This document shows, in pieces, positions 13,167-39,030 of a DNA stretch of 51,101 nt (position 1 is its first letter; each line of letters begins with the position of its first letter). A model generated the notes under the pieces. It was given only the letters and a program-made list of their open reading frames with translations, made no database searches and had not been told where the DNA came from. A program made the translations under genes and the position numbers. Origin of the DNA: Bacteroidota bacterium (GTDB lineage Bacteria; Bacteroidota; Bacteroidia; B-17B0; Aurantibacillaceae); the NCBI GenBank assembly GCA_023251755.1, contig JAHEYF010000021.1:8869-59969 (forward strand). The letters are read 5' to 3'.

Positions 13167-16100
13167 ATGAAAAATATTGAAGACGTATATGAATTATCAC
13201 ACATGCAGCTGGGCATTTTGCTGGACACGATTTACACACCAGGTGCCGGAGGATACCACCAACAGCTTTGTTTTAAACTACAGGGCAATTTAAATGAAGA
13301 AGCTTTTAAAAACGCCTGGAAAAAATTAATTGATACACATGAAGTTTTCAGAACTTCTTTTCATTGGGAAGATCTTGAAAAGCCCATGCAGGTGGTACAC
13401 AAAGAGGCTGAATTGGTCTGGATATACAAGGACAACAGTCACCTTGAAGAAACATGTGCTCAACAATCGGCAACAGATTTATTGGTTACAGATAAAACAC
13501 AGGCTTTTGTTTTAGATAAATTACCCTTAATAAGGTGTTATTTGACAAAAATAAAAAAAGACGAATGGAACTTTATTTTTAGCTATCACCATTTACTGTT
13601 GGATGGGTGGTGCCTGCCAATTATTTTAGGTAATATTTTTAATTTTTACAGCACAGCTGTTAAAGGTGTAAATCTGCCTGTTTCGAAGGGGGAGCCGTAT
13701 AGAAATTATATTCAGTGGCTGCAAAAAAAGGATGCAGGTGCCGCAAAAAAATATTGGGAGAAAAAACTCAGTGGTTTTTATGAAGCCAACAAACTTACTC
13801 CGCTTCCAATGGATTATGATACGAAAACATATCAATACAAAGAACATAATTTCTCCCTGCCGGCCAAAGAATCGGCTGCTATGCTTGAACTGGCCAAACA
13901 ATTGCGAATTACCCCGTATACCATTCTACAGGGATTTTGGGCGCTTACATTAAATAAATTTACACTGGACAATGACATTGTATTTGGTACAACTATATCG
14001 GGCCGGACAGAAGAGATAAACGGTGTGGACAATATGGTTGGCTTATTCATCAATACAATCCCAATACGAGTGGGGATTGATAATGAAGCCCTTGTCAGCG
14101 ACTGGTTGGTCAACCTGTTTGAAGAAAACAATGAAAGTGGAAAGTATTCGTATGCATCATTAAGTGATGTGAAAAAATGGAGCAAAGTTGCGCACAACGA
14201 ACATCTTTTTGAAACAATCATCGTATATGAAAATTACCCGATGGGTGATTTATCAAACGATAGCATAGGTTTAAAATTAAGCAATTTTGAACTTATTGAG
14301 CGACCAAACGTTCCGCTGGCCTTGCTTATTATTCCTGGCGAAGTGTTTAATTTTAAAGCCATCTACAACGGAGAACGTTTCAATGCTGAATTTGTTGACA
14401 GCGTATTGCAAAGTTTGTTATGTGCAGTACAGGATTTTATTGCAACATCTTCCAAATCAATAAAACAATTGAATTGGACCAATGGAAAAACTGATTCCTT
14501 CTTTTCATCTGCCTTTCAGTTACCTGCACAAAAAGAAAACGACAATGCCTGGTCACGTTTTTTAATACAGGCTAAGGCTTTTCCGGCCAAAACACTTGTT
14601 AAAGAAAAGCAGGGAACATATACCTATAAAGAAATGACAGACTGGTCAAACCAGGTTGCTGATGTACTTCATGCAAATGGATTACACAAAGGAGACCGGG
14701 TAGCCATATACATGGAAAACAGCGCCGGTATGATTGCCACCTTATTAGGGGTTCTGAAAATTGGAGCCGTGTATGTACCCATTGACCCTGAAACACCTGC
14801 TTCCAGGATTGATTTTATTTTAAAAGACAGTGCTATTCAATTGATTGCATGCGATGCCCTTTTGATAAATAAATTAAAAGCCAATCATGAACTTAAGTGT
14901 AAAGCGCTGGCAATAGAATCCTGTAACCCTGATTTAGTTGCTATCACCAGCATGGAGTCGAATGTTAGTGGAACGGATATCGCGTACATCATTTATACTT
15001 CAGGATCTACAGGCACACCCAAAGGTGTGCAAATAGCACACAGCAATTTATTAAATTACATTGACTGGGCTGCAGGGTATTATGTAAATGGAGAAACTGA
15101 TTTTCCTTTGTACAGCTCCTTAGCTTTTGATCTTACAGTTACTTCTATTTACACACCACTGTTTACAGGTAATGCCATTGTTGTATACAGTGGTATTGAC
15201 AAAGCATTGATTGTTCAGGAAATTATTGCAGACAACCAGGTTGATATTATTAAATTAACTCCTTCACACCTGAAAATTGTGAGATCGGTTGGAGCTATTC
15301 AAAGCAGGGTGAAAAAAATGATAGTGGGTGGAGAAAATCTAGAACGTTCACTGGCCGATGATGTAATTAATAATTTTGGTAAAGACCTGGTGCTGTACAA
15401 CGAATATGGCCCGACAGAAGCTACAGTGGGTTGCTTTATTTTCAGCTACGATGGTTCGGGGCTTAATGGACAAAATGTTCCGATTGGTTTCCCTGTTACA
15501 AACATGGAAGCTTATGTAATGGATGAAAATTTGAACACTGTTCCAAAAGGTGCAAAAGGAGAATTGTGTTTAGCAGGGCTTAGTCTTAGTCCGGGGTATT
15601 TGCACAATGAAGAATTGAATGCAAGTCGTTTTGTAAACAATACAGCGGGAAATAAATACCCAAAACTATACCGCACCGGAGATATTGTGCGTCAAAATGA
15701 AAACGGACTACTTGAATTTATTGCAAGAAAGGACGATCAGATTAAAGTAAGGGGCCACCGCATAGAAATGGGAGAAATTGAAACCATTTTAGAATTGCAT
15801 CCTGATATTAAGTCTGCTGCGGTTTCTTTGGTTCAGCTTAAAAGAAAGGCATGGGACATAGAAGATGTTTATTATTGTACATCATGCGGCATTCAATCGG
15901 TGTACCCGAACATTACTTTTGATAACGATGGCGTTTGCAGCACCTGTAAAACGTATGAGAGCAATAAACTCAGGGCGCAGGAGTATTTCAGGTCAATGGA
16001 CGATCTCAAAGAGATTTTTAACAAAACGAAAAATAGTAAAAGTGAATACGACTGCCTTGTACTTCTTAGCGGCGGAAAAGACAGCACTTATGCATTGTCA

Positions 16101-17405
16101 AAATTAGTAAGAGAACTGAAGCTCAGGGTACTTGTTTTCACTATGGACAACGGGTACATTTCGGAGCAGGCAAAAGACAATATGAAGAACATTTGCTCCA
16201 CATTAAATGTAGAACTTGTTTTTGGAAGCACAAAAGCAATGAACACTATTTTTAAAGACAGCCTTCAGAAATACAGCAATGTATGCCAGGGTTGTTATAA
16301 AACAATTTACACCCTGAGTATTGAACTGGCGAAAAAAAGAAATATTCCTTATATCATCACAGGGCTTTCAAGGGGCCAGCTTTTTGAAACAAGGTTGGAT
16401 GAATTATACAATGCTAAAATTTTTAACCCGGATAAAATTGATGAATGGGTGTTGAATGCAAGGAAAGAGTACCATAGAAAACACGATGCTGTTTCAGAAA
16501 ATTTAAATGTAGGAATGTTTAAAGAGGACAAGATATTTGAAGAAGTTCAGTTTATTGATTTTTACAGGTATTGTGATGCAACACTGGGAGAAATGTATAC
16601 TTATCTTGAAGAGCAGGTGAAATGGGTAAGGCCGGAAGACACAGGCCGCTCAACAAATTGCCTGATCAACGACCTGGGTATTTATGTGCATAAAAAAGAA
16701 AGGGGCTTTCACAATTATTCATTGCCTTATTCATGGGATGTTCGCCTGGGCCATAAAAAAAGGGAAGAGGCTTTGAAAGAACTGGACGATGAGATAGACC
16801 TGACCAAGGTAAAAGAAATAATGCAGGAGGTTGGGTACCAGCTTGAAAAAGCACCTGCTGTTGAAGAGCAATTGTTTGCATTTTATGTTTCAGAAAAAGA
16901 AATTCCAAATCATGAATTAAAGGCCTGGTTAACTAAGTATATCTCTACGGCAGTAATTCCTACAGGGTTCATCAAATTAGATGCTTTACCACTTACAATA
17001 AATGGTAAAATTAACAGGAATGCACTGCGTCATGAAAGTAAAGCCGCTTCGTTTAACAGGGCAGAATTTCTTGCCCCGGGCAATCAGCTTGAACGCGATA
17101 TAGTAGACGTGTGGAAAGAGGTGTTGGGAATTGACAACATTGGTGTTAAAGACAATATTTTTGATATAGGAGGCCACTCCATGACAATGACATTGATCTT
17201 TAATAAATTAAAAGACAAAATAAACCTGTCTTTATCCCTTGTCGAAATGTACGAGTACCCAACTGTTTTTGACCTGGCGGAACGAATCAAAGCAGTTGAA
17301 AAAGAACTTCAAACAGAAGATTTCCCAACAGAAGAAAACAAGCGAAGGGTAAATCGGAATTCATCGAACCGCAAATTAGCGAGAGCAGAAGCCAGCGACA
17401 ATTAA
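13167..17405 (+). CDS. NRPS module C-A(PP-loop ATP pyrophosphatase)-T, predicted Asn
   Basis: A 1412-residue single module starting six bases after the previous stop. C domain: HHLLLDG at residues 141-147, intact; it follows an E domain, so it should accept an epimerised donor. A domain from ~450: YTSGSTGTPKG near 609, NEYGPTE (A5), YRTGDIV (A7), RGHRIEMGEIE (A8, ~862). Specificity residues by eye are D-L-T-K-I-G-E-V-G, essentially the asparagine code. Between A8 and A9 lies a ~340-residue insertion (~892-1229) with two CxxC pairs (C904/C907, C924/C927) and a PP-loop SGGKDS at 968-973; the A domain then resumes with FAFYVSEKEI, VIPTGF (A9) and NGKINR (A10). T domain: IGGHS, Ser1338. The tail after the T domain is basic. 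No separate tailoring gene of this family is in the window, so the inserted domain probably acts in cis on the Asn residue or its backbone. Module assignment is secure; insert chemistry is inference. Confidence 0.94.
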   Translation: MKNIEDVYELSHMQLGILLDTIYTPGAGGYHQQLCFKLQGNLNEEAFKNAWKKLIDTHEVFRTSFHWEDLEKPMQVVHKEAELVWIYKDNSHLEETCAQQSATDLLVTDKTQAFVLDKLPLIRCYLTKIKKDEWNFIFSYHHLLLDGWCLPIILGNIFNFYSTAVKGVNLPVSKGEPYRNYIQWLQKKDAGAAKKYWEKKLSGFYEANKLTPLPMDYDTKTYQYKEHNFSLPAKESAAMLELAKQLRITPYTILQGFWALTLNKFTLDNDIVFGTTISGRTEEINGVDNMVGLFINTIPIRVGIDNEALVSDWLVNLFEENNESGKYSYASLSDVKKWSKVAHNEHLFETIIVYENYPMGDLSNDSIGLKLSNFELIERPNVPLALLIIPGEVFNFKAIYNGERFNAEFVDSVLQSLLCAVQDFIATSSKSIKQLNWTNGKTDSFFSSAFQLPAQKENDNAWSRFLIQAKAFPAKTLVKEKQGTYTYKEMTDWSNQVADVLHANGLHKGDRVAIYMENSAGMIATLLGVLKIGAVYVPIDPETPASRIDFILKDSAIQLIACDALLINKLKANHELKCKALAIESCNPDLVAITSMESNVSGTDIAYIIYTSGSTGTPKGVQIAHSNLLNYIDWAAGYYVNGETDFPLYSSLAFDLTVTSIYTPLFTGNAIVVYSGIDKALIVQEIIADNQVDIIKLTPSHLKIVRSVGAIQSRVKKMIVGGENLERSLADDVINNFGKDLVLYNEYGPTEATVGCFIFSYDGSGLNGQNVPIGFPVTNMEAYVMDENLNTVPKGAKGELCLAGLSLSPGYLHNEELNASRFVNNTAGNKYPKLYRTGDIVRQNENGLLEFIARKDDQIKVRGHRIEMGEIETILELHPDIKSAAVSLVQLKRKAWDIEDVYYCTSCGIQSVYPNITFDNDGVCSTCKTYESNKLRAQEYFRSMDDLKEIFNKTKNSKSEYDCLVLLSGGKDSTYALSKLVRELKLRVLVFTMDNGYISEQAKDNMKNICSTLNVELVFGSTKAMNTIFKDSLQKYSNVCQGCYKTIYTLSIELAKKRNIPYIITGLSRGQLFETRLDELYNAKIFNPDKIDEWVLNARKEYHRKHDAVSENLNVGMFKEDKIFEEVQFIDFYRYCDATLGEMYTYLEEQVKWVRPEDTGRSTNCLINDLGIYVHKKERGFHNYSLPYSWDVRLGHKKREEALKELDDEIDLTKVKEIMQEVGYQLEKAPAVEEQLFAFYVSEKEIPNHELKAWLTKYISTAVIPTGFIKLDALPLTINGKINRNALRHESKAASFNRAEFLAPGNQLERDIVDVWKEVLGIDNIGVKDNIFDIGGHSMTMTLIFNKLKDKINLSLSLVEMYEYPTVFDLAERIKAVEKELQTEDFPTEENKRRVNRNSSNRKLARAEASDN
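15840..16853 (+). other. Zinc-ribbon + PP-loop (N-type ATP pyrophosphatase) domain inserted in an A domain (A8-A9)
   Basis: The insert begins with YYCTSCG, followed by PNITFDNDGVCSTCK: two CxxC pairs forming a probable zinc ribbon. Then comes YDCLVLLSGGKDSTYALSKL, the PP-loop that binds ATP pyrophosphate. Further on are TMDNGY, a third Cys pair NVCQGCYKTIY (C1040/C1043) and IPYIITGLSRGQLFETR. This layout most resembles the WbpG/PseA-type N-acetyl sugar amidotransferases, which adenylate a carbonyl oxygen and replace it with nitrogen. Related PP-loop families make thioamides, nitriles and thiolated bases. Inside an Asn-type A domain the natural candidates are the Asn side-chain amide or a peptide amide being turned into an amidine, thioamide or nitrile, or Asp being amidated on the carrier. 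Family level is confident; reaction is not. Confidence 0.85.
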
Positions 17406-17432: not shown

Positions 17433-20400
17433 ATGGAAGAATACAACGGAACAGAAATCGCAATTATAGGAATGTCCTGCAGAATGCCGGGGTCCAAAAA
17501 TACAGATGAGTTTTGGAACAACATTAAAAACGGTGTTGAATCAATTTCCTTTTTTACAGAGGAAGAGCTGCGTGATGCGGGAGTGGAGCAACAATTGCTG
17601 GACAATAAAAATTACATCAAAGCAAACGGGCTATTAGAGGACGCTGATAAATTCGACGCCTCTTTTTTTGATATAGGCCATAAAGAAGCTGAGATAATGG
17701 ACCCGCAGCACCGGGTGTTTTTGGAAGAAGCTTACAAGGCATTGGACGATGCAGGATATTCTCAGTCTAAGCACAGAGGACGAGTGGGTGTTTTTGCAGG
17801 CTGTGATATGAACACCTATTTACTTCACAATATATTGCAAAGCCCTGAAAAAATAAGAGCCCTGGGTGATTTTATGCTGATGTTATCGAATGACAAGGAT
17901 TACCTTTCAACAAGGGTTTCTTATATGTTAAACTTAACAGGCCCCAGCATGAATGTTCAAACGGCCTGTTCAAGTTCGCTGGTGGCCATTCATACAGCTT
18001 GTCAGAGTTTGCTGAACGGAGAATCCGATATTGCCCTGGCCGGAGGTGTGTCTATACGGCCACCCATGAAGCAGGGCTATTTGTTTGTAAAGGACATGAT
18101 CAATTCCCCCGATGGGCATTGCAGGCCCTTTGATGCGAATGCAGAAGGAACCATTAGTGGAAATGGAGTAGGGGTGGTGGTGTTAAAAACACTGGCTGAT
18201 GCTTTGCGCGATAAAGATAATGTGATAGCAGTTGTGAAAGCATCCGTTATCAATAACGACGGGGCCAATAAAGTCGGCTTTACAGCGCCCGGTGTTAAGG
18301 GCCAGTCGGATAGTATTACAGAAGCCATCAACCTTGCGGGTATTGATCCGAACACCATTCGTTTTATTGAAACACATGGCACAGGAACAAAGATGGGCGA
18401 CCCTATTGAAATTCAGGCCCTGGACCGCGCCTTTAAAAAATTTACAGATGAAAAAGAGTTTTGTGCATTGGGTGCGGTTAAAGCGAATATAGGCCATACA
18501 AGCGCAGCAGCAGGTGTTGCCGGCTTTATAAAAACCGCATTGGTGCTTCGCAACGGATTGATCCCTCCCATGGTAAATTACCAGCAGGCCAATCCGCATA
18601 TTCAGTTTTCAAAAACAGCTTTTTATGTTCCCACCAAAGCAATTGAATGGCCCGGAAAACAAACACGCAGAGCTTCTGTCAGCTCATTTGGTATTGGCGG
18701 AACAAATGCACACCTTGTTCTGGAAAATGCACCTGCTACTAAACAGGAAGCACAGGCGGTAAACTATAATGTGATTTCCCTGTCTGCAAAAACAGGCAAA
18801 AGCCTGCAAACAACAGCAGAAAACCTGGCCGCTTATTTACAAACAAACGAAAATACTTCACTCAGTGATATAGCTTACACATACCATATTGGCCGTGAAT
18901 TTCATGCTTTCAGGAGGTCTTTTATTTGCCAATCAAAAGATGAATTGATTGAAGCCCTTTTAAGTAAGGATCCTAAAAAATATATTTCCGACCAGGTTAC
19001 AGATGAATCATTACCTGTGTTTTTTCTTTTCCCCGGACAAGGGAGCCAGTACGATGGAATGTTTTCACAACTTTACATTGAGAATACATTTTTCAAAAAT
19101 CAGTTCGATCAATGTACAGAACTATTAATTAAGCACCTTGGTTTGGATATTCGTGATTTAATACTGGACCGAAAAAATAACGCTTTCCGTCCCGAACTGG
19201 CGCATCAGACGGAATACGCCCAACCCTTATTATTTGCAGCCGAGTATTCACTGGCCATGGTATTGCTTGATTGTGATGTTAAGCCGGAAGCTGTTATCGG
19301 GCATAGCCTTGGTGAATATGTTGCAGCTACAATTGCAGGTGTATTTACACTTCCGGATGCTTTAACAATAGTAAGTAAACGCGGGAAGTTAATGCAGGCT
19401 TGTGAACCCGGTGCAATGATTTCTGTGATGATGTCCGAAGAAAAGGCGGCCACATTGATCGGAACCGATTTATCTGTTGCAGCAGTCAACACATCTTCAA
19501 GTTGTGTGGTATCCGGGTCTTATACGGCTATTCAGGAGTTCGAAACACGTTTAACGGATTTAAAAATTGCTTATCAACGCCTGAATACATCGCACGCTTT
19601 TCATAGTTCGATGATGGAGCCCTGCGTTGAAGAGTTCAGAAATACCGTCAGTGAAATTAAATTAAATCCACCTGCCTTAACTATTATCTCCAATATTGAT
19701 GGAACAGTTTTAAGTGCAAAAGAAGCACAGGACCCTGTGTATTGGGCCTTGCAAATACTAAAGCCTGTTAATTTTAATAAAGGAATTAAACAGCTGTTGA
19801 AGTATACCAATGCTGTGTTTGTAGAAGTTGGACCCGGTACAACGCTTATCAACTTAACACGTGAAAATGCATCAAAAAAAGACAGCCATATTTTAATTAA
19901 CCTGTTGCCCACAGCAAAAGAAAAAAAGGCAGACTTTGTTCAATTTCTGGAAGGTATAGCTAAACTCTGGTCAAAAGGGCTTGCTGTTAATTTTAAAAAA
20001 ATGTACCAGGACAAGACTTGCCAACGCTGTTCACTTCCCCCTTATCCTTTCGACAGCAGGTCGTATTGGATAAATACAACAACTGATCTTCCCGGTACAA
20101 AAGCTCCTAAATCAGCAGTATTGTCTTCTTCCGCACAATTTTATGTGCCTGTATGGAAACAAAGTTTAACCCTACCTGATGCGTTTTCCGATAACACAGA
20201 TCCTGTTTTAATTTTTTCATTTGGGAAAACGGTACTGGAAAATAGTTCGTTTCCACATTTGAAAGAAAGCAATGCTGTATATTACATCGGGAGAGGAGAA
20301 AGTTTTGAAACGCTTGGCAACAACCAGTACCAGGTAAATGCAGAAGAACCGGAAGATTACCGCAAGCTTTTTGAACACTTAAATTTAAAAGGCACTGCAC

Positions 20401-22028
20401 GGATTAACATCATTTTTAGTTCCGATAGTACTTCTGCAAAACCTTCCAAAGCCTGGAAGGAGCCTGAATATGCGAACTTTTTTGAATTAATCGGCTTGGC
20501 CAGGTTCCTTGGTAGCAGATCAGGCACAACATTTTTTCTGAATGTAATTTCCAGGGGAATACACCTGATCACCGGAACAGAAAAATTAAACCCGGAGGAA
20601 AGCCTTGTACAGGGCGCGGTTAAAATTATTCCTTTAGAATATAAAAATATCCGTACCCGTTTAATTGATTTATCGTCTACAGATAAATTTTCTAAAGAAG
20701 ATATGGGAAGGGTACTTGTGAATGAATTAAATATTGAGGAATCGCAGGCCGTTGTTGCGTATAGGGGGAATCAGCGTTTTGAGACGGATTACGAAAAAAT
20801 TACCTTGACAGAAAATAACAATCGTGTAAAATTAAAACCAACTGGATCGTACCTGATTACAGGTGGTACAGGAGGAATTGGTTTGGAGATTGCCCATGCT
20901 GTTGCAACAAAAGTTGCGGGTACCAAAATAGCCCTTATGGGCCGTTCAAAAATTCCTTCTGAAAATTTATGGAATGAAATTGCGAACGAGCCAGCACATG
21001 AGTACCACGCCCTTGTTTTACGACTTATTGAACTGCAGAAAAAAACAGGCGCATTAAAAATAATAAATGCAGATGTTTCAGTCTACAAGGAGTTGAAACC
21101 GGCAATGAAGGAACTAACAAAAGAGTGGGGCGCACTCAACGGGGTTGTACATGCAGCCGGTGTAGCGGATTACAAGGGTGTAATTGAAAACAGAACAAAA
21201 GAGAACCTTGCAGAAATCCTCCTCCCAAAGGTAAATGGAACCCTTGCGCTGGATAATTTAATTGACTATGAAAAACTGGACTTTTTTGTATTGTTCTCTT
21301 CTTTAAGCACTGTTTTTTATAAATCGAAAGTGGGGCAAGTCGGCTACATTGCAGCAAATGAATTCAACGATGCTTTTTCAGCTTACCATAAAAGCATCGG
21401 CAAAAATAAAACAAGCACCTTCAACTGGAACGACTGGAAGGAAGTGGGGATGTCTGTAAAAGCAAATGTTCGTTTAGCTAAAATGCTGGGTATTACTACT
21501 GAGCACTCTATTTTCCAGGACGCTCTAACAAACGAAGAAGGCAGGCAGGTGTTTCTCACTTCCCTTCTTTCAAACCACCCACGGCTCATTGTATCAAAAA
21601 AAGACATCCGTGAAGAGTTTGCAAATTACAGGGATTACAATTTAACTGAATTCGTAAAAGAAATCAGGCTTGATTCAGCTGCGCGGAACAGGGATGAAAC
21701 AAATGTTGATGCTAACATTGATTATATAGAGCCCTCTACTGATTTGCAGAAAGCCATTGCTGCTATTTTAGAAAATTGCCTGGGAGTAAATAAAATAGGG
21801 CTAAAGGATAATTTTTTCGACTTAGGAGGCCACTCTTTACTGGCTATACAAGCCATTGATCAAATTAAAAAAGACCCCTTAGTTGAATGTGAACTCTCAC
21901 TTGAAGTGTTTTTTCAGCACCCCACCATTATAGAGTTAAGTGAATACATAGAGAATATACACTGGCAAAGGAAAGCAAATGAAACAACGGAAGAAGTGGA
22001 ACAGGAAGAAGAGGAAGGTATCATATAG
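17433..22028 (+). CDS. Type I PKS module KS-AT-KR-ACP
   Basis: A 1531-residue single PKS module starting 27 bases after the NRPS gene, with no N-terminal docking coil. KS: Cys179 in QTACSSS, His315 in ETHGTG, His355 in IGHTSAAAG. AT ~525-830: GHSLGE with Ser625 and HAFH at 721-724, predicting malonyl-CoA. No DH motif lies between AT and KR; the stretch ~850-1110 fits the structural half of the KR. KR: TGGTGGIG near 1141 and Tyr1305 in VGYIAANEFND. ACP: LGGHSLLA with Ser1468. It should elongate the Asn-derived acyl chain by one malonate and leave a beta-hydroxyl, giving a beta-hydroxy (statine-like) unit. The C-terminus is a strongly acidic tail (EEVEQEEEEGII), a plausible partner for the TubC-type docking domain starting the next protein. 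Domain calls are secure; KR stereochemistry was not called. Confidence 0.95.
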   Translation: MEEYNGTEIAIIGMSCRMPGSKNTDEFWNNIKNGVESISFFTEEELRDAGVEQQLLDNKNYIKANGLLEDADKFDASFFDIGHKEAEIMDPQHRVFLEEAYKALDDAGYSQSKHRGRVGVFAGCDMNTYLLHNILQSPEKIRALGDFMLMLSNDKDYLSTRVSYMLNLTGPSMNVQTACSSSLVAIHTACQSLLNGESDIALAGGVSIRPPMKQGYLFVKDMINSPDGHCRPFDANAEGTISGNGVGVVVLKTLADALRDKDNVIAVVKASVINNDGANKVGFTAPGVKGQSDSITEAINLAGIDPNTIRFIETHGTGTKMGDPIEIQALDRAFKKFTDEKEFCALGAVKANIGHTSAAAGVAGFIKTALVLRNGLIPPMVNYQQANPHIQFSKTAFYVPTKAIEWPGKQTRRASVSSFGIGGTNAHLVLENAPATKQEAQAVNYNVISLSAKTGKSLQTTAENLAAYLQTNENTSLSDIAYTYHIGREFHAFRRSFICQSKDELIEALLSKDPKKYISDQVTDESLPVFFLFPGQGSQYDGMFSQLYIENTFFKNQFDQCTELLIKHLGLDIRDLILDRKNNAFRPELAHQTEYAQPLLFAAEYSLAMVLLDCDVKPEAVIGHSLGEYVAATIAGVFTLPDALTIVSKRGKLMQACEPGAMISVMMSEEKAATLIGTDLSVAAVNTSSSCVVSGSYTAIQEFETRLTDLKIAYQRLNTSHAFHSSMMEPCVEEFRNTVSEIKLNPPALTIISNIDGTVLSAKEAQDPVYWALQILKPVNFNKGIKQLLKYTNAVFVEVGPGTTLINLTRENASKKDSHILINLLPTAKEKKADFVQFLEGIAKLWSKGLAVNFKKMYQDKTCQRCSLPPYPFDSRSYWINTTTDLPGTKAPKSAVLSSSAQFYVPVWKQSLTLPDAFSDNTDPVLIFSFGKTVLENSSFPHLKESNAVYYIGRGESFETLGNNQYQVNAEEPEDYRKLFEHLNLKGTARINIIFSSDSTSAKPSKAWKEPEYANFFELIGLARFLGSRSGTTFFLNVISRGIHLITGTEKLNPEESLVQGAVKIIPLEYKNIRTRLIDLSSTDKFSKEDMGRVLVNELNIEESQAVVAYRGNQRFETDYEKITLTENNNRVKLKPTGSYLITGGTGGIGLEIAHAVATKVAGTKIALMGRSKIPSENLWNEIANEPAHEYHALVLRLIELQKKTGALKIINADVSVYKELKPAMKELTKEWGALNGVVHAAGVADYKGVIENRTKENLAEILLPKVNGTLALDNLIDYEKLDFFVLFSSLSTVFYKSKVGQVGYIAANEFNDAFSAYHKSIGKNKTSTFNWNDWKEVGMSVKANVRLAKMLGITTEHSIFQDALTNEEGRQVFLTSLLSNHPRLIVSKKDIREEFANYRDYNLTEFVKEIRLDSAARNRDETNVDANIDYIEPSTDLQKAIAAILENCLGVNKIGLKDNFFDLGGHSLLAIQAIDQIKKDPLVECELSLEVFFQHPTIIELSEYIENIHWQRKANETTEEVEQEEEEGII

Positions 22029-22066: not shown

Positions 22067-25000
22067 ATGATAGCATTGAATAAAATATTATCTACACTAA
22101 GAAATAAAAAAATAAAAGTTTGGACAGAGGAGGGAGAGCTTAAATACAAAGCTCCCAGGGGGGCTTTGGATGAAGAGACCAGGGCGGCGCTGAAAGAGAA
22201 CAAGGCAGCGATTATTAAACACCTTGAATCAATTGAAACCAAAGCTTTGGTTAAGCCTATTGTAAAAATTTCCCGCAACGAAAACCTCCCGCTTTCATAT
22301 ATTCAACAAGGAATTTGGTATGCCTGCCAGTTTAAAGAGAATGCATCCCTTTACAACATGGTGATGGCTTTTGAGATGTCAGGTGAATTAGAATTTACTG
22401 TTTTTCAGTCGGCGATTAATAAATTAATTGACAGGCATGAAATTTTACGGACTAATTTTTTGGAAATTGAAGGGGAAGTAAAACAAATCATTCACGAAGA
22501 AAGGCCTGTTAAAGTTTATTACGAAGAATATACGCATGGAGCAGAATCAGCAAAAGCTGTTTTTGAAAACCGGCTCAGCAAAGAAAAACAACATCGTTTT
22601 GATTTAATAAACGATCCATTATTTAATATTGGCCTGGTCAAACTGGAAGACACGAGGTGGTATGTTTGGTTAAACATCCACCATATTATATCGGATGGTT
22701 GGTCTTCCAATGTTTTTTTCGCGGAACTGATTAAATTGTATACAGCTGAAATAAAAAATGCTGAAACAACATTAACACCACTTGCCATACAATACGCCGA
22801 TTATTCGGCCTGGCAAAGAGATCAACTATCAGGAGAATCTTACGAAAAGCTTTTAAACTTCTGGAAAAATAATTTAGCAGGTATTCCTGAGCTTCTTCAG
22901 ATACCCAATCAAAAAGCAAGAACAACCAAACAAACCTATAAAAGTGCTGTTGTAAGTGTTGAATTAAACACCGGTACTACGAAAGAATTTCTTGACCATA
23001 CCAATAAACTGGGTTTAACTCCCTTTATGGCCTTTCTTTCGGTTTTTTCGCAGGTTATTGCTAAATACACCCGGCAAAATGATATTGTAATTGGTACTGC
23101 AAGTGCCAACAGGTCAAATACACAGGTTCAATCGCTGATCGGTTGTTTTGTAAACGTTCTTCCTTTAAGAATTTTAGTGGACCCTTCTTTTACCTTTGAT
23201 CAATTCGCCTCTTCATTAAAACAAAATATGCTAGACTGTTATAATCACCAGGAGATGCCTTTTGATAAGCTTGTAAATGAATTAAATCCAAAACGAAACT
23301 TAAGTTACAATCCGATTGCACAGGTTATGTTTAATATGAACACCACTGTATCGGAGAAAATAAACATGGATGGCTTTAGCCTTCTGCCTTTTGAGACAGA
23401 AGCCCCGGCAGCTGGTAATTACGACCTTCAGCTTGAAATTAAAGAGAAGTCCGGTTTTTATTCAGCTCAATTTACCTACAATGACGAATTGTTCGATCAG
23501 CATTTTATTGAAGGATTTGCAAGTCATTATACAACTATTCTTTCAAACTGTTTCCGAAACCCTGAAATAAATATTTCTGAAATGAACTATTTAAGTCCAC
23601 AGGAAACAAATCAATTGTTGTTTGAATTTAATGATACTCAGGCAAATTACCCTCAGCATAAAACACTGATCAGCTTATTTGAAGAACAGGTGCTTAAAAC
23701 ACCTGATGAGATAGCTCTTGTATTTCAGGAAAAGGAACTCAGTTACCGGGACCTGAATGAAATGTCAAATGCTTTGGGTAATTATTTAAGGAAACAATAC
23801 GATGTAAAGCCGGATGATTTAATAGGCCTAAAGCTGGAACGAAGTGAGTGGATGATTATCTCTATATTGGGTGTATTGAAGAGCGGAGGAGCTTATGTTC
23901 CAATAGATCCTGAATACCCGGAAGACAGGGTAACGTATATGGTATCAGACAGTCGATGTAAAATTTTAATAGATGAAAATGAACTTATAAAATTCCATAA
24001 AGAAAAGAATAAATTCAGTACGGAAAATTTACCGGTTGTTAATAAACCCAATGACCTGGCTTATGTTATTTATACGTCTGGCTCAACAGGTAAACCTAAA
24101 GGTTGTATGCTGGAACACAAAGGTGTAATCAACAGGATTGAGTGGATGTGGAAGGCCTATAATTATTCCCGGGAAGATATTATATTGCAAAAAACCACGT
24201 TTACCTTTGATGTTTCTGTGTGGGAAATTTTTATGCCCTTGTGCTGGGGAGCAAAAATGGTACTGTGTTGCAAAGAGGATATTGGTTCACCCCAAGGTAT
24301 TTTAAAATTAATAGAAGCTCAAAAAATCACCTGCCTGCATTTTGTTCCCAGTATGCTCAATGCTTTTATAGCTGATTTATTTTCTGAGACTGAGCATATA
24401 AAATCATTGGCAAGCCTTAGAAGGGTGATAACCAGCGGGGAAGCATTGTCGGCTGAAACGGTGAAAAAATGGTATGCAAAAACCGATATCGTTATTCATA
24501 ACCTGTATGGACCCACAGAAGCTTCTGTGGATGTAACACATTATTCAACCAACAGGGAGGATACACATATTCCAATTGGCCGCCCTGTATGGAACACGCA
24601 GATGTATGTTTTGGATGAGCAATTGCAATTGGTGCCGGTAGGAGTAACAGGAGAGTTGTGCATTGGCGGGGATGGGCTTGCGCGGGGTTATTTAAATAAA
24701 CCTGAACTAACGGAAGAAAAATTTATACAACATCCATTTAAACCAAATGAGCGTATCTATAAAACCGGTGACCTGGCTAAGTGGACGCCGGATGGAACAA
24801 TTGATTTTTTAGGCCGGAAAGATGACCAGGTGAAGATACGCGGTTACAGGATAGAATTGGGGGAAATTGAAGATAAACTGTTGAATCACCCATTGATTAA
24901 TGCCGCCGTTGTTTTAGCCAAATCAAACCAACAGGGAGAAAAAGAACTCATTGCTTATATTGTTAGTAAAGAGAATTTTAACAGTTCCACTTTAAGAACT

Positions 25001-28000
25001 TATTTAAATACTTCTCTTCCCTTGTATATGATACCGGCTCATTTTGTGGCCCTGGAAACTTTACCACTTACACCAAATGGCAAAGCTGACAGGAAGGCGA
25101 TTTCACAGATAGACAGTTTGGGACTGGCCAGAGAAACAGAATACATACAACCAAAGAATGAGGTACAGGAAAGATTAGTAAGGATATGGCAGGATGTATT
25201 GGCGATAGAGAATATAGGAATAAATGCTGACTTTTTCGAATTGGGTGGTCACAGTTTAAAGGCGATCATGTTGTTAAACCATATTAATAAAGGGTTTGAA
25301 GTAAAGTTAAGCTTAAAGGAATTATTGGAAAATCTGGTGTTGGAAGACCAGGCCCAACTAATACAAAATGCAAAGAAGATTGTTCACAATCCAATTGTAC
25401 CTGCCCCTGTACAACCAAGTTATCCATTGTCTTCTTCACAGCGAAGAATGTGGACCCTGAGCCAGTTTGAAGAAGGCAACATAGCTTACAATATTCCCGG
25501 CGTATTTGTATTTGAAGGGCTTTTAAACAAAGCCGCTTTGGAGCATTCTTTCAAAAAATTGATTGAACGGCATGAAATACTGAGAACATTATTTGTAGAA
25601 AATGAGCAGGGGGAAGTGAGGCAGCTGGTATATCCATACGGGGATTCAAAATTTAAAATAAACTACCACGACCTGATGAACCAGCAAGAGCAGGAGGCTA
25701 CACTTAAGGAGAGGATACAGACGGAATGCAATGCATCTTTCGGTCTTGCCTCGGGCCCTTTGTTGCGGGCAAGTCTATATGGCCTGGCAAACAACAAATG
25801 GGTTTTTACGTTTATCATGCATCATATAATTAGTGATGGCTGGTCGATGGATATTTTGTTGAAAGAGTTGTTGATGTTTTACCATTCATATTCTCAAAAA
25901 ACAGACCATCTGCCGGAACCACTGGCCATCCAGTATAAAGATTATGCCTCCTGGGAACAGGAACAACTAAAAGGAGATGCAATAAACGATCACAAAGAAT
26001 ACTGGATCAATCAATTTAAGGGCGGGCTGCCCGTATTGGAGCTGCCAGTGGACAGGCCCCGTCCCGCTATAAAAACGTACAATGGCGGAGTTATAAGTGG
26101 GAATATTAATCCTCAGATCAGCAAAGGACTAAAAGAACTTTGCAATGCACAGGACTCTACTTTATTTATGGGATTACTGGCTTCTGTAAATGTTTTACTG
26201 AACAGGTATACAAATCAGGAAGACATTATTATAGGCAGTCCAATTGCGAACAGGGAACATGCTGACCTCGAAAATCAGATCGGTTTATATTTAAATACAC
26301 TGGCCTTAAGAACCAATTTGAAAGGGAAGGACAGTTACATAGAGGTATTGAAAAATGTAAAGGACAATACCCTTGATGCATATAAAAATCAGGCTTATCC
26401 GTTCGATGAACTGGTGAATGAGCTGAACCTGACTCCTGATAGAAGCCGTAGTATCCTGTTTGATGTGATGATTGATTTAAAGAACAATGAATCTACATTG
26501 GACACGCACGTTCAGCATATCGGAGACCTGAAAATAAGTAATTATGAGGGCAGCGAGTATGTGATCAGTAAATTTGACCTGGCCTTTAATTTCGAAGATT
26601 CAACAAATGGAATAGACCTCTTACTGGGATACAACAATGATATTTTAAACAAGGAAACAGCCCAACGATTAGTTCAACATTTTACACAACTTATTGATGC
26701 AATTGTTGAATTCCCTGGCCATGCAATAAATACATTAGACTATATCGGGAAAGAAGAGCGCCAGGAACTACTGGTCAATTTCAACAATACGGCTCTGGCA
26801 TTTCCAAAAGATAAAACCATTGTCGGATTATTTGAAGAACAGGTGGCTAAAACCCCGGACAACATTGCCCTGGTGTTTGAAGAAAAACAATTTAGTTACA
26901 AGGAACTGAACGAAAAATCGAATCAGCTTTCGTCTTATTTACGGACGAAGTATAAAATAGAGCCCGATGACCTGGTTGGAATAAAATCAGAGCGCAATGA
27001 ATTGCTGATCATATCCATTTTAGCCGTACTGAAAAGCGGAGGGGCCTATATTCCAATCGATCCGGAATACCCGCAGGAACGGATAGATTTTATGATAAGC
27101 GACAGCAACTGTAAGCTTGTGCTGGACGAAGAAGAACTTCAACTGTTTACTACAAAACGTGCCATTTATAGTAAGGCAAATTCGAAGCATATTAATAAAT
27201 CAAGCGATTTAGCTTATGTGATTTATACATCAGGATCAACCGGTAAGCCTAAAGGCGTAATGGTGGAGCATCAATCATTGGTAAATTTATGCAGCTGGCA
27301 CATTGCAAATTTTGGAGTAACTGAAACAGACCATGCAAGTGTATACGCCAATCAGAGTTTCGATGCTTCGGTATGGGAGATTTTTCCATACCTGGTTTCC
27401 GGAGCCTCCCTTTATATCATCCCAAAAGAAATAAGATTAGACATTCCTGCATTAACAGCTTATTTCGAAGCAAATAAAATATCAATCAGTTTTTTACCTA
27501 CTAAAGTCGGGGAACAATTTTTTGAAGTAGAAAACAATTCGTTGCGCTATTTGTTAGTGGGTGGCGATAAATTAAATTCATTCGTAAATAAGAATTACCG
27601 CATTGTAAATAATTACGGTCCAACGGAAAACACGGTTGTAACTACCAGCATTGTACTTGGTACTGAAAACAAAAACATCCCGATTGGATCTCCCATTTCC
27701 AATACATCCGTTTATATTCTCGACAAGCAAAACCAGTTGTGCCCGATTGGTGTTATTGGTGAAATATGCATTTCGGGTGAAAGCCTGGCAAGGGGCTATT
27801 TAAATCAGCCTGATTTAACAGCCGAAAAATTTGTCACAAACCCTTTTAAGGAAGGCGAACGAATGTATAAATCGGGTGATATGGGCCGCTGGGGTGCTGA
27901 TGGAACGATTGAGTTTGCCGGCCGTAAAGACGACCAGGTAAAAATACGGGGGTACAGGATTGAATTGGGCGAGGTAGAAAATGCATTGCAACAACAGGAA

Positions 28001-31000
28001 GATGTAGATGCTGTTGTTGTAATTGCCCGGGCAAACGCTGATGGTTACAATGAATTAGTTGCATACGTAGTCTCCAAAATCACCCTGAACACTTCTGTTA
28101 TCGGATCGTATTTAAGTACAATTTTGCCGGCTTATATGATCCCCGGTCATTTTATACAATTGGAAGCATTTCCATTAACGCCCAATGGAAAAATAGATAA
28201 AAAAATGTTAGCCGGTATGGATAGCCAGGGAATGTCGACCGGCTTAAAATATATTGCCCCAACAAATAAAACAGAAGAGGTACTTGTTGCAATATGGCAG
28301 GAACTATTAGACAAAGAAAAAATTGGAATTGAAGACAATTTTTTTGAGATAGGCGGACATAGTTTAAAAGCAACCCGTATTATTTCCGGGGTGTATAAAC
28401 AGTTGAACAGAAAAATTACCCTCAAAAATATATTTCTTCAGCCTACAATCAGGCAGCTGGCTCAGCTCATTCAATCCACAGACGAAGTGCAATTTACAGA
28501 TATTCCTAAACTGCCTCTTCAGGAAGATTATGAATTGTCTCATTCCCAGCAGCGCATTTGGGTGTTGGAGCAACTGGTGGAAAATTCTTTGGCCTATGTA
28601 ATGCCAATGGCTTTTGAAATCACAGGTAAATTAGATGCGGCTGCTATGAATGTTGCTTTCCAAAAAATTGTGAAACGTCACGAGAGCCTTCGTACCGTTT
28701 TTATCAATAAAGGCGGTTATCCACGGCAGGTTATTAAGGAAGCTGAAGAACTACAGTTTGCGCTTGAGCTGAAAGATTTAACAGGAATAGCAAACGCAGA
28801 GTTGCTGATTGAAAAACAGTTGAAAGAAGATTCCTCTTCTGCGTTTGACCTGGAAAAAGGCCCGTTGTTGCGAGGTGTTATCCTGAAGATAAATGAAAAC
28901 AAAACTATTTTTTCTTTTTCAATGCACCACATCATATCCGATGGATGGTCCCTGGATGTTTTTGTAAAAGAATTAATGCATTTCTACCATCATGTTGTTT
29001 CGAATACAGAACCGGCCCTACCAGCTTTAAGAATTCATTACAAGGATTTTAGCGGTTGGCAAAATAAACAACTGCTTGATAAATCAACGGTCAATAGCAG
29101 GAAGTATTGGCTTTCAAAATTTGAAGGAGAAATTCCTGTATTGAATTTACCCGCAGATTATAGCCGTGTCAACAGCCTTAAAAATTATGGACAGGCCACC
29201 ATCGTCAATTTTGACAAAGAGCTGGCCGCAAAAGTTTATGCCTATTGCAAGAAAGAAGATGTGAGTAATTTCATTTTCCTGTTGGCATTGGTTAAAACAC
29301 TGTTGATTAGATATACGGGACAAAAGGATATAGTGATAGGAACCCCTGTGGCGGATCGTAACCACCCTGATTTAGAAGATCAGATAGGAGTTTTTATAAA
29401 TACATTGCCGTTGAAGTCAGCATTAAGTGCGGATAAATCTTTTTCTGTATTTCTTTCAGAACTTCGCGAACAGGTAACTGATGCTTACCATCACCAGGAT
29501 TACCCCTTCGATAAATTAGTGGATGAGCTTAATTTAGAAAGGGACAATACAAGGAATCCACTTTTTGATGTGTTGATCAGGCTGGATATACTGGATGATA
29601 ATAAACACAGGTATGCGGGACTTGAGATCAAACTAATTGGCGAAGGAAGCGGGGTGAGTAACTTTGACCTGGTTTTTAATTTTGAGCTGAAAGGTGAAGA
29701 ATTAAAAATGGTTATTGGATCAAATACAGCCCTGTACAAACCCGAAACAGTAGAGCGCATGGGCGAACACCTGTTAAGTATTGCGTCAGCGGTGATCGGT
29801 GCGGATAAAATTGTATTGGGGGATATCAACTATCTCTCAGACAATGATCATCACTTGCTCAGCTCGTTTAACAACAACAAGGCAGCGTGTATTCAGCAAA
29901 CAATAGATCAGCTGGCAACAACACTTGCTTTAAATAATCCAAATGGTATTGCTATACAGCAGGTGGATCAAACACTTACCTATAAGCAATTGCACTTGGA
30001 TTCCAATCGCATAGCCGCTTATCTGCATTCCAACAATGCTCAGCCCGAAGAAGTAATTGCGGTGATTGCGACTCCGGGGATAGCAATGATAAAAATAATA
30101 GTGGGGGTACTAAAATCCAATTGTGCTTACCTTCCAATAGATGCAGACCTTCCGGAGGAACGCATAAAGTTTATGCTGCAAAATGCAGGTGTTAAAAAAA
30201 TAGTACTGGACAAAAAGGAATACATTTCGAAATTTAAATTAGATGCGGATCAGTGCAGGGTAATTGATGCGGAATGCAAAGCTGTTGAGGAATATTCATC
30301 TGAGGACCTTCACCTTGAAAAAAGGCAGGATCAATTGGCTTGTGTATATTACACTTCCGGGTCAACAGGAATTCCAAAAGGAGTCATGCTCCAACACGAT
30401 GGCCTGGTAAACCGGATTGCCTGGTTCTGGAAAAACTTTGAATGCACAGCAAAGGACGTCTATCTTTTTAAAACACCTTTTACATTTGATGTTTCCATGA
30501 GTGAAATGTTTATGCCCGTCTGCTTTGGATGTAAAATGTTAATACTTGAGGAACACACCATATTAAATCCTCATGAATTAAGCAGGGCCATTGATAAGTA
30601 CGGCATTACCATTACACATTTTAGTCCGACAGTACTCAACTCATTTTTGGAAACACTCGATCAGGAAGAATTTCTGAAACTTGATTCATTAAGATATGTA
30701 CTTTCCAGCGGTGAAGCTTTGCCAAGAAGTGTTGTTCAAAAATACTATGCAGGGATGAAGGCTCCCCTTGTAAATCTTTACGGGCCAACAGAAGCCTCTA
30801 TAGAAGTGAGCTGGCACGTGTGTTCGTCCAAAGATGAAAGCATACCCATTGGAAAACCAATTGTAAATGTTGGCCTTCATATTTTAGATGATAAGGGCAG
30901 GGAAGTCGCTATTGGAGTTGAGGGGGAAATTTGTATCTCTGGAATTGCATTGGCAAGAGGATACCTTAATAATCCGCTGATGACCGCTGAAAGGTTTGTA

Positions 31001-34024: not shown

Positions 34025-35668
34025 ATGTTTTTTATCAAATATTATAAATTCTTAAAAGAAAACAGTTCTTTTTCCCTCTTTAAACTAATGGCAATGGGGC
34101 TGATTGCCGGGGTGTCGGGAACAGCATTGCTTATTATCATCAACAATGTAATTGCCCTCGATCCGCAAAATGAAAAATTTTGCCCCAATTTATTTATAGG
34201 CTTTATTGCAATTATGGGCGTACACTTTACTGTGCAAACCTTTTACCAGGCAAGTTTAATCAGGCTCTCCATGGATTTAATATGGAAGGTCAGGATGAAA
34301 GCCCTAAGTAATATACGGCATGCCGATCTTCTGAAATACGAAGCATTCGGAATAAGCAGGATATACAATATCCTTACTTCCGATGTAGCCAGCATCAGCC
34401 GGGTGGGCCAGATGCTTTCGGCAATTATTGTAGCAGCTGTTACCATTCTTTCCTGCTTGATTTACCTGGCCTGGCTTACACCAATTGGCTGTTTAATTTC
34501 CATAGCGGTAATGGTGTTTATTGCAATTGTGCATGCAATTGGGGAAAAGAAAAACAATAAACGTTTCAGGGAATCGGTAGAAGTGGAGGACAAATTTTTC
34601 AGGTACTTCTCCTATATTTTGTATGGTTTAAAAGAGTTAAAACTCGACAAGCATAAAAATGACGACCTCTTCCATAATCATGTGGAAAAGGCGGCGATGG
34701 AAGCGAAAGAATTACGAACCCGCGTGAACATAAAGTTTTTACGCAATTCCCTGTTGGGCCAGTTTTTTTTCTTTGGTGTTATTGCTTTGTTTTTATTCGT
34801 GTTTCCTTTTTTTAAAATTTCATTGCTCTCTAATAGTGCGCAGTATATATTAATTACCCTGTATATTATGTCCCCGGCACAAACAATTGCCCAATTTATT
34901 CCTGATTTTTTTCAGGCAAGCATAGGCTTAGACCGTTTTCGGGAATTGGAAAAATTAGAACAGGCCAAAGGAAACGACGACGGTAAAAATATTTTATTTT
35001 CTGCTACTACTTTATCACTCAGCTTCAAAGAAGTAGTCTTTAAATATGAAGCTCAACACGGTGAAAAAGGATTTGAATTGGGGCCGCTCAATTTTAATTT
35101 TTGTAAGGGGGAACTTGTATTTTTGACAGGAGGAAACGGATCGGGTAAATCAACTTTTATACGATTGCTGACAGGCTTGTATGCTCCGGGTTCCGGCTCT
35201 ATTATAGTTGATGGGAATGAAATATCAACTGAACATGGCGAATCTTACAGGTCTTTGTTTTCTGTTGTTTACACAGATAGTTTTCTTTTTGACAAGGTCT
35301 TCGGGATGAAAGAAAATCAGGATCAACAAATGAATAAAATTCTTAAAGACATTGGCCTGGGTTCAAAAGTTAAATTCAAAGACCATGCTTTTTCAACAAC
35401 AGATTTATCTTACGGCCAAAAGAAACGATTAAGCCTTGCCACGTGCCTGTTGGAGGACAATGAAATTTACATTTTCGATGAACTGGCGGCCAATCAGGAC
35501 CCGGAATTTAAAGATTATTTTTACCACCAGGTACTTTCGGATCTTCGGAATAAAGGGAAGATTGTTTTGGTTGTAACACACGATGAAAAGTATTTTTACC
35601 TGGCAGATAAACATTATAAAATGGAAATGGGAAAAATTGTAAAATATGAAGAGTATGCAAAAGTATAA
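34025..35668 (+). CDS. Cyclic-peptide-type ABC exporter (TMD-NBD fusion)
   Basis: A 547-residue half-size ABC transporter starting 27 bases after the terminal NRPS. The N-terminal ~300 residues contain several hydrophobic segments (for example ~20-45, 55-75, 130-180 and 240-290). The C-terminal ATPase has Walker A GGNGSGKST (~370), signature LSYGQKKRLSLA (~462) and Walker B EIYIFDEL (~482) followed by AANQDPEF. Length, layout and the short ATPase resemble the PvdE/SyrD group of cyclic peptide and siderophore exporters. The position right after the TE-ending NRPS points to export of the product across the inner membrane, and it may confer self-protection. A canonical Walker B Glu is present (FDE). 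Substrate is inferred only from context. Confidence 0.9.
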   Translation: MFFIKYYKFLKENSSFSLFKLMAMGLIAGVSGTALLIIINNVIALDPQNEKFCPNLFIGFIAIMGVHFTVQTFYQASLIRLSMDLIWKVRMKALSNIRHADLLKYEAFGISRIYNILTSDVASISRVGQMLSAIIVAAVTILSCLIYLAWLTPIGCLISIAVMVFIAIVHAIGEKKNNKRFRESVEVEDKFFRYFSYILYGLKELKLDKHKNDDLFHNHVEKAAMEAKELRTRVNIKFLRNSLLGQFFFFGVIALFLFVFPFFKISLLSNSAQYILITLYIMSPAQTIAQFIPDFFQASIGLDRFRELEKLEQAKGNDDGKNILFSATTLSLSFKEVVFKYEAQHGEKGFELGPLNFNFCKGELVFLTGGNGSGKSTFIRLLTGLYAPGSGSIIVDGNEISTEHGESYRSLFSVVYTDSFLFDKVFGMKENQDQQMNKILKDIGLGSKVKFKDHAFSTTDLSYGQKKRLSLATCLLEDNEIYIFDELAANQDPEFKDYFYHQVLSDLRNKGKIVLVVTHDEKYFYLADKHYKMEMGKIVKYEEYAKV

Positions 35669-36380
35669 AGTGTTGTGTTTTAGTTTTGCAGGAGGAAGTA
35701 AGTATTCGTTCCGTGCAATGGAGAAAAACATGCCGGCTCATATAGAGTTGGTTACAACGGATTATCCCGGGCGTGGAAGCCGTATGGCAGAAGGCTTGTT
35801 GAAAGATGTGAATGAGCTGGTAACAGACATGTATCAACAAATTAAGCACCACATTGATGCACCCTATATGATTTATGGCCACAGCATGGGCGGCCTTGTT
35901 GCATACAAGATGCTACAGTTGTTGAGAACCGAAGGGAAAAAACTTCCCGACAATGTTTTAATAACGGGCTGTCGTGCGCCCTCCAGCTGGGATAAAAGGA
36001 AAAGGCTGCACGACCTGCCTTATGATGAATTGGTAAAGGAATTAACAGTGATGGGTGGTGTGCCGCAGGAAATTTTAAAGGACAAGGATTCGATGCTTTT
36101 TTTTGAACCAATCATGCGCGCCGATTTCTCGGTTGTTGCATCACATATCTATCAAAAAACGGCCCCTTTTTCAATACCTTTTAAAATAATTACAGGAACG
36201 CAGGAAGAAATCAGCCAGGAAGACGCGTTAAAATGGCAAGAAGAAACAACAATACCCTTATCTTATGAACGATTGGAAGGAGGTCATTTTTTTATCTTCG
36301 ACCACCCTCAAAAAATTGCAGAAGTAATAACCGCTTGTTTCCAAAAAAACTTAATGTCAAACACACTGGAATCATTATAA
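35646..36380 (+). CDS. Type II (editing) thioesterase
   Basis: A 244-residue alpha/beta hydrolase of the GrsT/SrfAD family: LCFSFAGGSK at the N-terminus, GHSMGG with nucleophile Ser80, and the catalytic His in EGGHFFIFDH (His214). It overlaps the exporter by 23 bases from ATG 35646; an in-frame ATG at 35655 would shorten the overlap to 14. Type II thioesterases hydrolyse wrong or stalled acyl groups from carrier domains, which suits a synthetase with seven carrier domains in view. The third catalytic residue is usually Asp in a GxxD segment; here the segment reads TGTQEEISQED, so Glu may replace it or the Asp may be shifted. It is the last gene of the biosynthetic operon; the next gene is convergent. 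Confidence 0.92.
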   Translation: MKSMQKYKVLCFSFAGGSKYSFRAMEKNMPAHIELVTTDYPGRGSRMAEGLLKDVNELVTDMYQQIKHHIDAPYMIYGHSMGGLVAYKMLQLLRTEGKKLPDNVLITGCRAPSSWDKRKRLHDLPYDELVKELTVMGGVPQEILKDKDSMLFFEPIMRADFSVVASHIYQKTAPFSIPFKIITGTQEEISQEDALKWQEETTIPLSYERLEGGHFFIFDHPQKIAEVITACFQKNLMSNTLESL

Positions 36381-38841: not shown

Positions 38842-39030
38842 GTGGTTGTTTTTTTAGTTGAGGTTTATTTATTATTGTTTAGGTGGGTGCAAGTAAAAGT
38901 AATTTAAGAAATTTTAAAAGTAAAAAGGGAACTCTTTTGAGGAATTATTAGGCTTCGAAAACACACAAAAGAAGCTGAAACCTTCCTTTGTGCTAAGCAA
39001 ATACTGGGAATTTTTTGTATTTTCATCCCA

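What the first reader, a model, noticed from the sequence alone, without database searches (positions are those of the whole stretch)
15840..16853. PP-loop ATP pyrophosphatase with zinc ribbon embedded in an asparagine-type A domain
Seen: two CxxC pairs, SGGKDS and a third CxxC, in frame between A8 and A9 of an A domain whose specificity residues read D-L-T-K-I-G-E-V-G. Known: the nearest-looking family (WbpG/PseA sugar amidotransferases) swaps an oxygen for nitrogen after adenylation; other PP-loop enzymes make thioamides, nitriles and thio-bases; A8-A9 is the site where methyltransferase and Ox domains are inserted in other NRPSs. Inference: this is a new class of interrupted A domain that activates Asn (or Asp) and then adenylates its side-chain or backbone amide to form an amidine, thioamide, nitrile or new amide in cis. 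I know of no described example.
Basis: partly seen in the sequence, partly recalled or inferred. Interest (0 to 1): 0.93.

Follow-up and report, generated by a model that had tools for sequence, protein, structure and literature searches.

The report
Asparagine-to-nitrile domain inside peptide synthetase
Inside the asparagine-activating part of a bacterial peptide-assembly enzyme sits an extra PP-loop (ATP-site) domain of a family already known from the antibiotic cystobactamid, which likely dehydrates the asparagine side chain to a nitrile and, from three unvarying cysteines that most sampled amidotransferase relatives lack, is predicted to hold an iron-sulfur cluster.

Summary
In detail: residues 892-1229 of a 1412-aa C-A-T NRPS module (15840-16853) are a PP-loop domain with a four-cysteine ribbon, inserted in frame between A8 and A9 of an Asn-coded A domain. 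It is not a new class: it is the AMDH (aminomutase/amide dehydratase) domain that Gross et al. 2021 (PMC7966384) tested in CysH of cystobactamid biosynthesis, where carrier-bound Asn becomes beta-cyanoalanine. Against the Cystobacter sp. Cbv34 module that I take for CysH the insert is 52% identical, with the same Asn code, SGGKDS and seven cysteines; 74 inserts form one clade. New here, for a family whose mechanism is unsolved: C1040, C1043 and C1165 are invariant in 344 listed relatives and near all-or-none in the wider amidotransferase family (59 of 61 ORFs). CxxC-C is the [4Fe-4S] motif of LarE, which would explain why purified CysH is brown. Triad proteins mostly lack a nearby HisF-type partner (1 of 12, against 39 of 47). 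The likely reaction is adenylation of the Asn amide and loss of AMP to a nitrile, not amidine formation. Activity and cluster are untested; the third cysteine could not be equated with LarE's by profile.

The parts
13167..17405 (+). NRPS module C-A(AMDH insert)-T, 1412 aa
13179..14483 (+). Condensation domain, HHLLLDG present
   Evidence: Pfam PF00668; motif
14568..15839 (+). A domain up to A8, Asn code DLTKIGEVG
15840..16853 (+). AMDH-type PP-loop insert
   Evidence: TIGR03573 and QueC matches; 52% identical to the CysH-type insert; AlphaFold2 pLDDT 89.6, pTM 0.89
15876..15947 (+). four-cysteine ribbon C904/C907/C924/C927 (Zn site in the NASAT crystal structure)
   Evidence: PMC10607449 passages
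16068..16085 (+). PP-loop SGGKDS (968-973)
   Evidence: 340 of the 341 rows that cover it; the other reads SAGKDS
16284..16295 (+). C1040xxC1043, first two cysteines of the proposed [4Fe-4S] triad
   Evidence: 344 of 344; aligned with CxxC of LarE
16659..16661 (+). C1165, third cysteine of the proposed triad
   Evidence: 344 of 344; of 14 wider-family ORFs with any of the three cysteines 12 have all three
16854..17066 (+). remainder of the A domain, A9-A10 (NGKIN)
17097..17288 (+). T (carrier) domain, IGGHSM
   Evidence: Pfam PF00550
2025..13160 (+). upstream PKS-NRPS with a luciferase-like monooxygenase in its A domain
17433..22028 (+). downstream PKS module KS-AT-KR-ACP
22067..33997 (+). terminal NRPS with TE
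34025..35668 (+). peptide-export ABC transporter (TIGR01194)
35646..36380 (+). stand-alone thioesterase

Best explanation
The insert is an AMDH-type PP-loop domain, homologous to that of CysH, which likely converts the asparagine that its own module is predicted to load into beta-cyano-L-alanine at the cost of ATP. Shown by sequence: in-frame insert between A8 and A9, Asn code, intact SGGKDS, seven cysteines, homology to the CysH-type insert along the whole domain. Shown by others for CysH, not here: carrier-bound Asn loses 18 Da when the AMDH domain is present and not when it is deleted. Inferred: (1) the A domain loads L-Asn on the T domain; (2) the carrier brings the Asn side chain to the PP-loop; (3) the amide oxygen attacks ATP, giving PPi and an O-adenylyl imidate (adenylation, not the phosphorylation proposed for albicidin); (4) AMP leaves and the nitrile forms, as proposed for QueC/ToyM and PesC; (5) the cyano-alanyl unit enters the chain and passes to the PKS module. 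Also inferred: C904/C907/C924/C927 bind zinc, and C1040/C1043/C1165 bind a [4Fe-4S] cluster whose free iron would orient or polarise the amide rather than give up sulfur.
Against: No activity, metal or metabolite data for this protein. The window insert sits with P0004 and P0005 on its own branch, outside the CysH subclade, so its outcome may differ (isoasparagine, or no change). The [4Fe-4S] PP-loop enzymes met in the passages read move sulfur. The fold does not single out Fe-S enzymes: NcsA 13.6 and LarE 13.4 are tied with an NAD+ synthetase (13.0), a GMP synthase (12.7) and ArtA (12.7), and Foldseek ranks YcfA above TtuA and LarE. Sequence profiles do not establish that C1165 equals the third LarE cysteine: the piece alone scored no better than two control pieces, and the whole-length global profile alignment does not pair them. 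The CysH authors held a radical mechanism unlikely and left the metal open. CysH also isomerises Asn, which simple dehydration does not explain.
Confidence: 0.7

Rival explanations
1. The domain works here mainly as an aminomutase: Asn on the carrier, perhaps after beta-hydroxylation, is isomerised to isoasparagine.
For: In the CysH pathway isoasparagine forms from hydroxylated Asn and, less, from Asn, and needs the AMDH domain (PMC7966384). A CmlA-type diiron beta-hydroxylase gene, running off the contig end, lies on the same contig upstream of the window, minus strand.
Against: The CysJ-type TauD hydroxylase gene found beside the CysH-type module in both myxobacterial genomes has no match at E <= 1e-10 in the window's genome, which is 93% complete; deletion of cysJ gave substantial nitrile product. 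The CmlA protein may act on another residue.
Confidence: 0.15
2. The domain transfers sulfur through a [4Fe-4S] cluster and makes a thioamide of Asn.
For: CxxC-C is the motif of the sulfur transferase LarE, and TtuA and NcsA also hold [4Fe-4S]; all are structural matches.
Against: The linkers listed for cystobactamids and albicidins in the introduction of PMC7966384 are nitrile, Asn, isoAsn or acid forms, with no thioamide; CysH in vitro lost 18 Da.
Confidence: 0.05
3. The domain is an amidotransferase like WbpG/WbuX and makes an amidine from the Asn amide and ammonia.
For: Nearest named family TIGR03573; same fold as 8WEX.
Against: Below the TIGR03573 cut-off; no listed HisF-type match near the module in any of 23 genomes with one; no GATase match among the window ORFs scanned with Pfam; CysH gives -18 Da, and -1 Da was not among the shifts seen in the passages read.
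Confidence: 0.05
4. The insert is present but catalytically silent in this module, which delivers plain Asn.
For: Not tested here. Lapcin was predicted with plain Asn although its LapB is called a homologue of the cystobactamid and albicidin modules (PMC8837603 passage; whether LapB has the insert was not checked).
Against: PP-loop and all seven cysteines are intact here, as in nearly all of the listed relatives and in the alignment of loci from 12 phyla.
Confidence: 0.05

Closest known systems
AMDH domain of CysH (cystobactamid); by the same paper also of AlbIV (albicidin)
   Same: Insert in an Asn A domain, SGGKDS, seven cysteines, 52% identity over the domain, identical nine-residue code. 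AlbIV was not compared here.
   Different: CysH is a stand-alone module loading the line in trans with CysJ/CysQ/CysB; here the module is C-A-T between PKS-NRPS genes, on a separate branch of the tree, and no TauD match is found in the genome.
N-acetyl sugar amidotransferases (WbpG, WbuX, LpNASAT 8WEX; TIGR03573)
   Same: Whole-domain fold, PP-loop, zinc-type tetracysteine ribbon.
   Different: Most sampled members lack the C1040/C1043/C1165 triad (47 of 61 have none) and most of those have a HisF-type gene within 8 kb (39 of 47).
[4Fe-4S] PP-loop sulfur transferases LarE, TtuA, NcsA
   Same: PP-loop core; CxxC aligned by profile with that of LarE; a third, distant Cys.
   Different: Extra ribbon and helices; third Cys not aligned with significance; reported AMDH products carry no transferred sulfur.
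QueC/ToyM, ArtA and PesC nitrile synthetases
   Different: Different substrates; none described there as an insert in an NRPS A domain; QueC and ArtA only weak matches to the AMDH profile (E 0.03-0.24).

Membership tests
AMDH domain (CysH type) | Inserted in an A domain with Asn code | tested here: met
   code identical to the CysH-type module; that this code means Asn is taken from recall and from PMC7966384
AMDH domain (CysH type) | Sequence homology to the CysH insert | tested here: met
   52% over 327 columns, E 3.4e-123 (alignment)
AMDH domain (CysH type) | SGGKD ATP-binding motif | tested here: met
AMDH domain (CysH type) | Falls in one clade with CysH inserts | tested here: met
   74 of 74 inserts, SH-aLRT 100, quick tree
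AMDH domain (CysH type) | Amide dehydratase and aminomutase activity | not testable with these tools
   needs enzyme assay
Cystobactamid-type system | Stand-alone A-T module with pABA modules and CysJ-type TauD hydroxylase | tested here: not met
   C-A-T in a PKS-NRPS line; no TauD match in the genome. pABA specificity of the other A domains not tested
N-acetyl sugar amidotransferase (TIGR03573) | Score over curated cut-off | tested here: not met
   141.1 against 203.2 bits
N-acetyl sugar amidotransferase (TIGR03573) | Tetracysteine ribbon and PP-loop | tested here: met
N-acetyl sugar amidotransferase (TIGR03573) | HisF-type partner gene nearby | tested here: not met
   own genome: both matches on contig C160, module on C85
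[4Fe-4S] PP-loop enzymes (LarE type) | CxxC at the LarE position | tested here: met
   hhalign probability 98, CxxC aligned; 8cnz alignment
[4Fe-4S] PP-loop enzymes (LarE type) | Third Cys at the equivalent position | tested here: inconclusive
   piece-wise profile score no better than two controls; not paired in the global alignment
[4Fe-4S] PP-loop enzymes (LarE type) | Bound iron-sulfur cluster | not testable with these tools
   needs spectroscopy

The most novel reading that the evidence does not exclude
The AMDH domain is an iron-sulfur, ATP-driven amide dehydratase: a PP-loop enzyme of the LarE cysteine pattern whose [4Fe-4S] cluster has been turned from sulfur donor into Lewis acid, so that one site adenylates the Asn amide and lets it collapse to a nitrile or rearrange to isoasparagine, much as aconitase uses its open iron. 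It would have been recruited once into Asn A domains from a stand-alone, ammonia-independent branch of the sugar amidotransferase family and spread over at least 12 phyla.
Probability: 0.4. Interest if true: 0.75.

Novelty: new member of a known kind. Interest (0 to 1): 0.5.

Why it matters
The AMDH mechanism was left open in 2021: ATP site seen, brown protein, no metal motif recognised. The seven conserved cysteines, the all-or-none pattern of three of them and the lack of a HisF-type partner give a testable answer, an Fe-S, ATP-dependent amide-to-nitrile step on a carrier protein. The window adds a case built into an assembly line in cis, and the family is a handle for finding nitrile- or isoasparagine-bearing peptides.

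Tried and rejected
Rejected: 'new class' (PMC7966384 found, passages read). Rejected as main reading: amidine and thioamide formation (see rivals).

Led nowhere: combined literature searches on NRPS with PP-loop or iron-sulfur terms returned no paper; one search listed 30 of 924 papers, many of them animal names that begin like AlbIV, and among the listed rows only PMC7966384 holds the words AMDH domain. So 'no published Fe-S proposal for AMDH' rests in this open-access library only. Passages of PMC8949500, PMC10212144 and PMC4598715 added nothing on the domain. PMC13329287 (section 8 and passages read) puts proteins of 900-2603 aa beside N-sugar amidotransferases in its QueC cluster 5 without naming AMDH; that these are AMDH modules is my inference. 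A regex count of C-domain motifs (52 of 214) looked too low beside the Pfam column and is not used. Neighbours of two stand-alone triad proteins scanned with Pfam gave no clear pathway. Model coordinates were not found in the box, so cysteine distances were not measured.

Rows dropped and limits: P0260. The 344 proteins are the rows listed by three searches capped at 120 each, so they are the nearest relatives. 132 of 344 had too little A domain for the code count. A3 holds 62 of the 80 loci, two myxobacterial modules and the window; in it one row of 65 lacks C924. First triad tables took 6 and then 16 sequences by a narrow pattern; one search replaced them with an HMM over 52 fetched windows, chosen by me from the stronger matches, with two windows from each of two genomes. 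Ten of its 61 ORFs lack the full ribbon. The two mixed rows (two and one Cys) are left out of the Fisher test. The HisF list typed comes, whose output says that more matches are not listed; TIGR03572 matched 13 of 14 control genomes, so it finds ordinary HisF too, and only 3 of 72 genomes passed the WbuZ cut-off. Several AMDH and triad genes lie on short contigs. L195-L198, next to AMDH in the tree, are long branches of unsure place.
Full report
Observation. The ORF 13167-17405 (1412 aa) encodes C-A-T. Its A domain is opened between A8 and A9 by 338 residues, 15840-16853, with no stop or frame change. The insert carries C904xxC907...C924xxC927, SGGKDS, C1040xxC1043 and C1165. The specificity residues by alignment are DLTKIGEVG; that this is an Asn code is recalled and agrees with what Gross et al. 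say of CysH and its homologues. C-domain HHLLLDG, A3, A5, A8, A10 and the T-domain serine motif are present, so the module looks functional.

What family. Alone, the insert matches TIGR03573 (WbuX, N-acetyl sugar amidotransferase) at E 5.4e-41 but below that family's cut-off, and Pfam QueC just above its cut-off. A protein search restricted to the insert finds 2113 proteins at E <= 0.001; the 119 listed besides the query are 54-84% identical, and most carry an AMP-binding domain. A scan of GTDB genome contigs found 319 relatives, 80 kept. The AMDH rows placed in the tree carry labels from 12 phyla, among them Bacteroidota, Pseudomonadota, Cyanobacteriota, Acidobacteriota, Actinomycetota, Chloroflexota, Planctomycetota and Myxococcota. 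The domain is uncommon: in samples it occurs within an NRPS-sized frame in 2 of 296 Bacteroidota genomes, the window's own included (G000 and G203), and in 3 of 195 genomes of the phylum of G296, the genome of a Myxococcota record.

Prior description. Gross et al. 2021 (PMC7966384; abstract, introduction and passages read) describe this domain: inserted in the Asn A domain of CysH (cystobactamid) and, they say, homologous in AlbIV (albicidin) and in many unassigned clusters. CysH loaded with Asn loses 18 Da to give beta-cyanoalanine; without the AMDH domain it does not. With the hydroxylase CysJ the domain isomerises instead. They saw SGGKD, found the protein dark brown, found no CxxCxxxC motif and left the mechanism open; for albicidin a phosphorylation of the amide oxygen had been proposed.

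Is the window's insert an AMDH domain? One search found CysH-sized modules in two myxobacterial genomes. For one (L153) Pfam shows cystobactamid-like gene content: chorismate-binding plus GATase protein, two-module NRPS with TE, O-methyltransferase, A-insert-T module, TauD dioxygenase; the other (L151) shows like-starting ORFs and a TauD match beside the module. The query region of the L153 module is 100% identical to a UniRef entry of Cystobacter sp. Cbv34, the strain from which CysH was cloned; the entry is not named CysH, so the identification is mine. The window insert is 52% identical to it over 327 aligned columns, E 3.4e-123, and shares the nine-residue code, SGGKDS and all seven cysteines. 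In a quick maximum-likelihood tree of 133 rows the 74 NRPS inserts form one clade, SH-aLRT 100. The window, with P0004 and P0005, is a branch of its own, not inside the CysH subclade. Of relatives with enough A domain, 212 of 212 have DLTKIGEVG (180) or a one-residue variant of it (132 of 344 could not be read).

New point 2: no ammonia partner. Using TIGR03572 (a model that finds WbuZ and ordinary HisF), a match lies within 8 kb of 39 of 47 triad-less proteins but of 1 of 12 with the triad (Fisher 2.7e-6; relatives are not independent, the match list was cut and some contigs are short). From the listed positions, compared by eye, none of the 23 genomes with an AMDH module has a match near it. 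This fits a reaction that needs no outside nitrogen.

Mechanism. I commit to adenylation of the carrier-bound Asn amide and loss of AMP to a nitrile. PP-loop enzymes cleave ATP to AMP and PPi (PMC10607449 passages); QueC/ToyM, ArtA and PesC make nitriles with ATP, and for PesC adenylation is supported by ATP analogues (PMC13060819 passages). The Fe-S site is proposed to bind or polarise the amide. Shown: anatomy, homology, conservation. Inferred: reaction, metal, product.

Surroundings. The module sits in a line of PKS modules, an A domain with a luciferase-like monooxygenase insert, this module, a PKS module and a terminal NRPS with TE, then a peptide exporter and a thioesterase. No TauD match at E <= 1e-10 is found in the genome (93% complete), which by the CysH results favours nitrile over isoasparagine; a CmlA-type hydroxylase gene near the start of the contig could act instead.

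Verdict.

Noticed in passing
window 9594-10613: A second interrupted A domain in the same line: a MupA/Atu3671-type FMN luciferase-like monooxygenase (TIGR04020, 489 bits) sits inside the A domain of ORF 2025-13160.
   Followed up: partly
L002:1-1743 (minus strand; G000 contig C85 start): CmlA-type diiron beta-hydroxylase running off the contig end upstream of the PKS genes; could hydroxylate a carrier-bound residue of this line.
   Followed up: partly
window 22067-33997, about residues 2762-3251 of the protein: Two A-domain A3 motifs about 490 residues apart with no carrier-domain motif found between them (4 AMP-binding and 3 carrier stretches in Pfam): perhaps an extra A domain in the terminal NRPS.
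   Followed up: no
L195, L196, L197, L198, L199, L200, L201: Stand-alone relatives with the cysteine triad and no listed HisF-type match on the same contig; four of them (L195-L198, long branches) lie next to the NRPS inserts in the tree; function unknown.
   Followed up: partly
L202, L203, L204, L206: Longer (609-680 aa) sugar-amidotransferase-like frames in Bacteroidota without the triad and without a listed HisF-type match within 8 kb: a separate, unassigned branch.
   Followed up: no
L162, L167: Triad-bearing stand-alone proteins whose PP-loop reads SFGKDS instead of SGGKDS.
   Followed up: no
window 37726-42523: Three genes with type IX secretion C-terminal signals, one of them Omp28-like, beside a TPR-LuxR regulator gene.
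   Followed up: no
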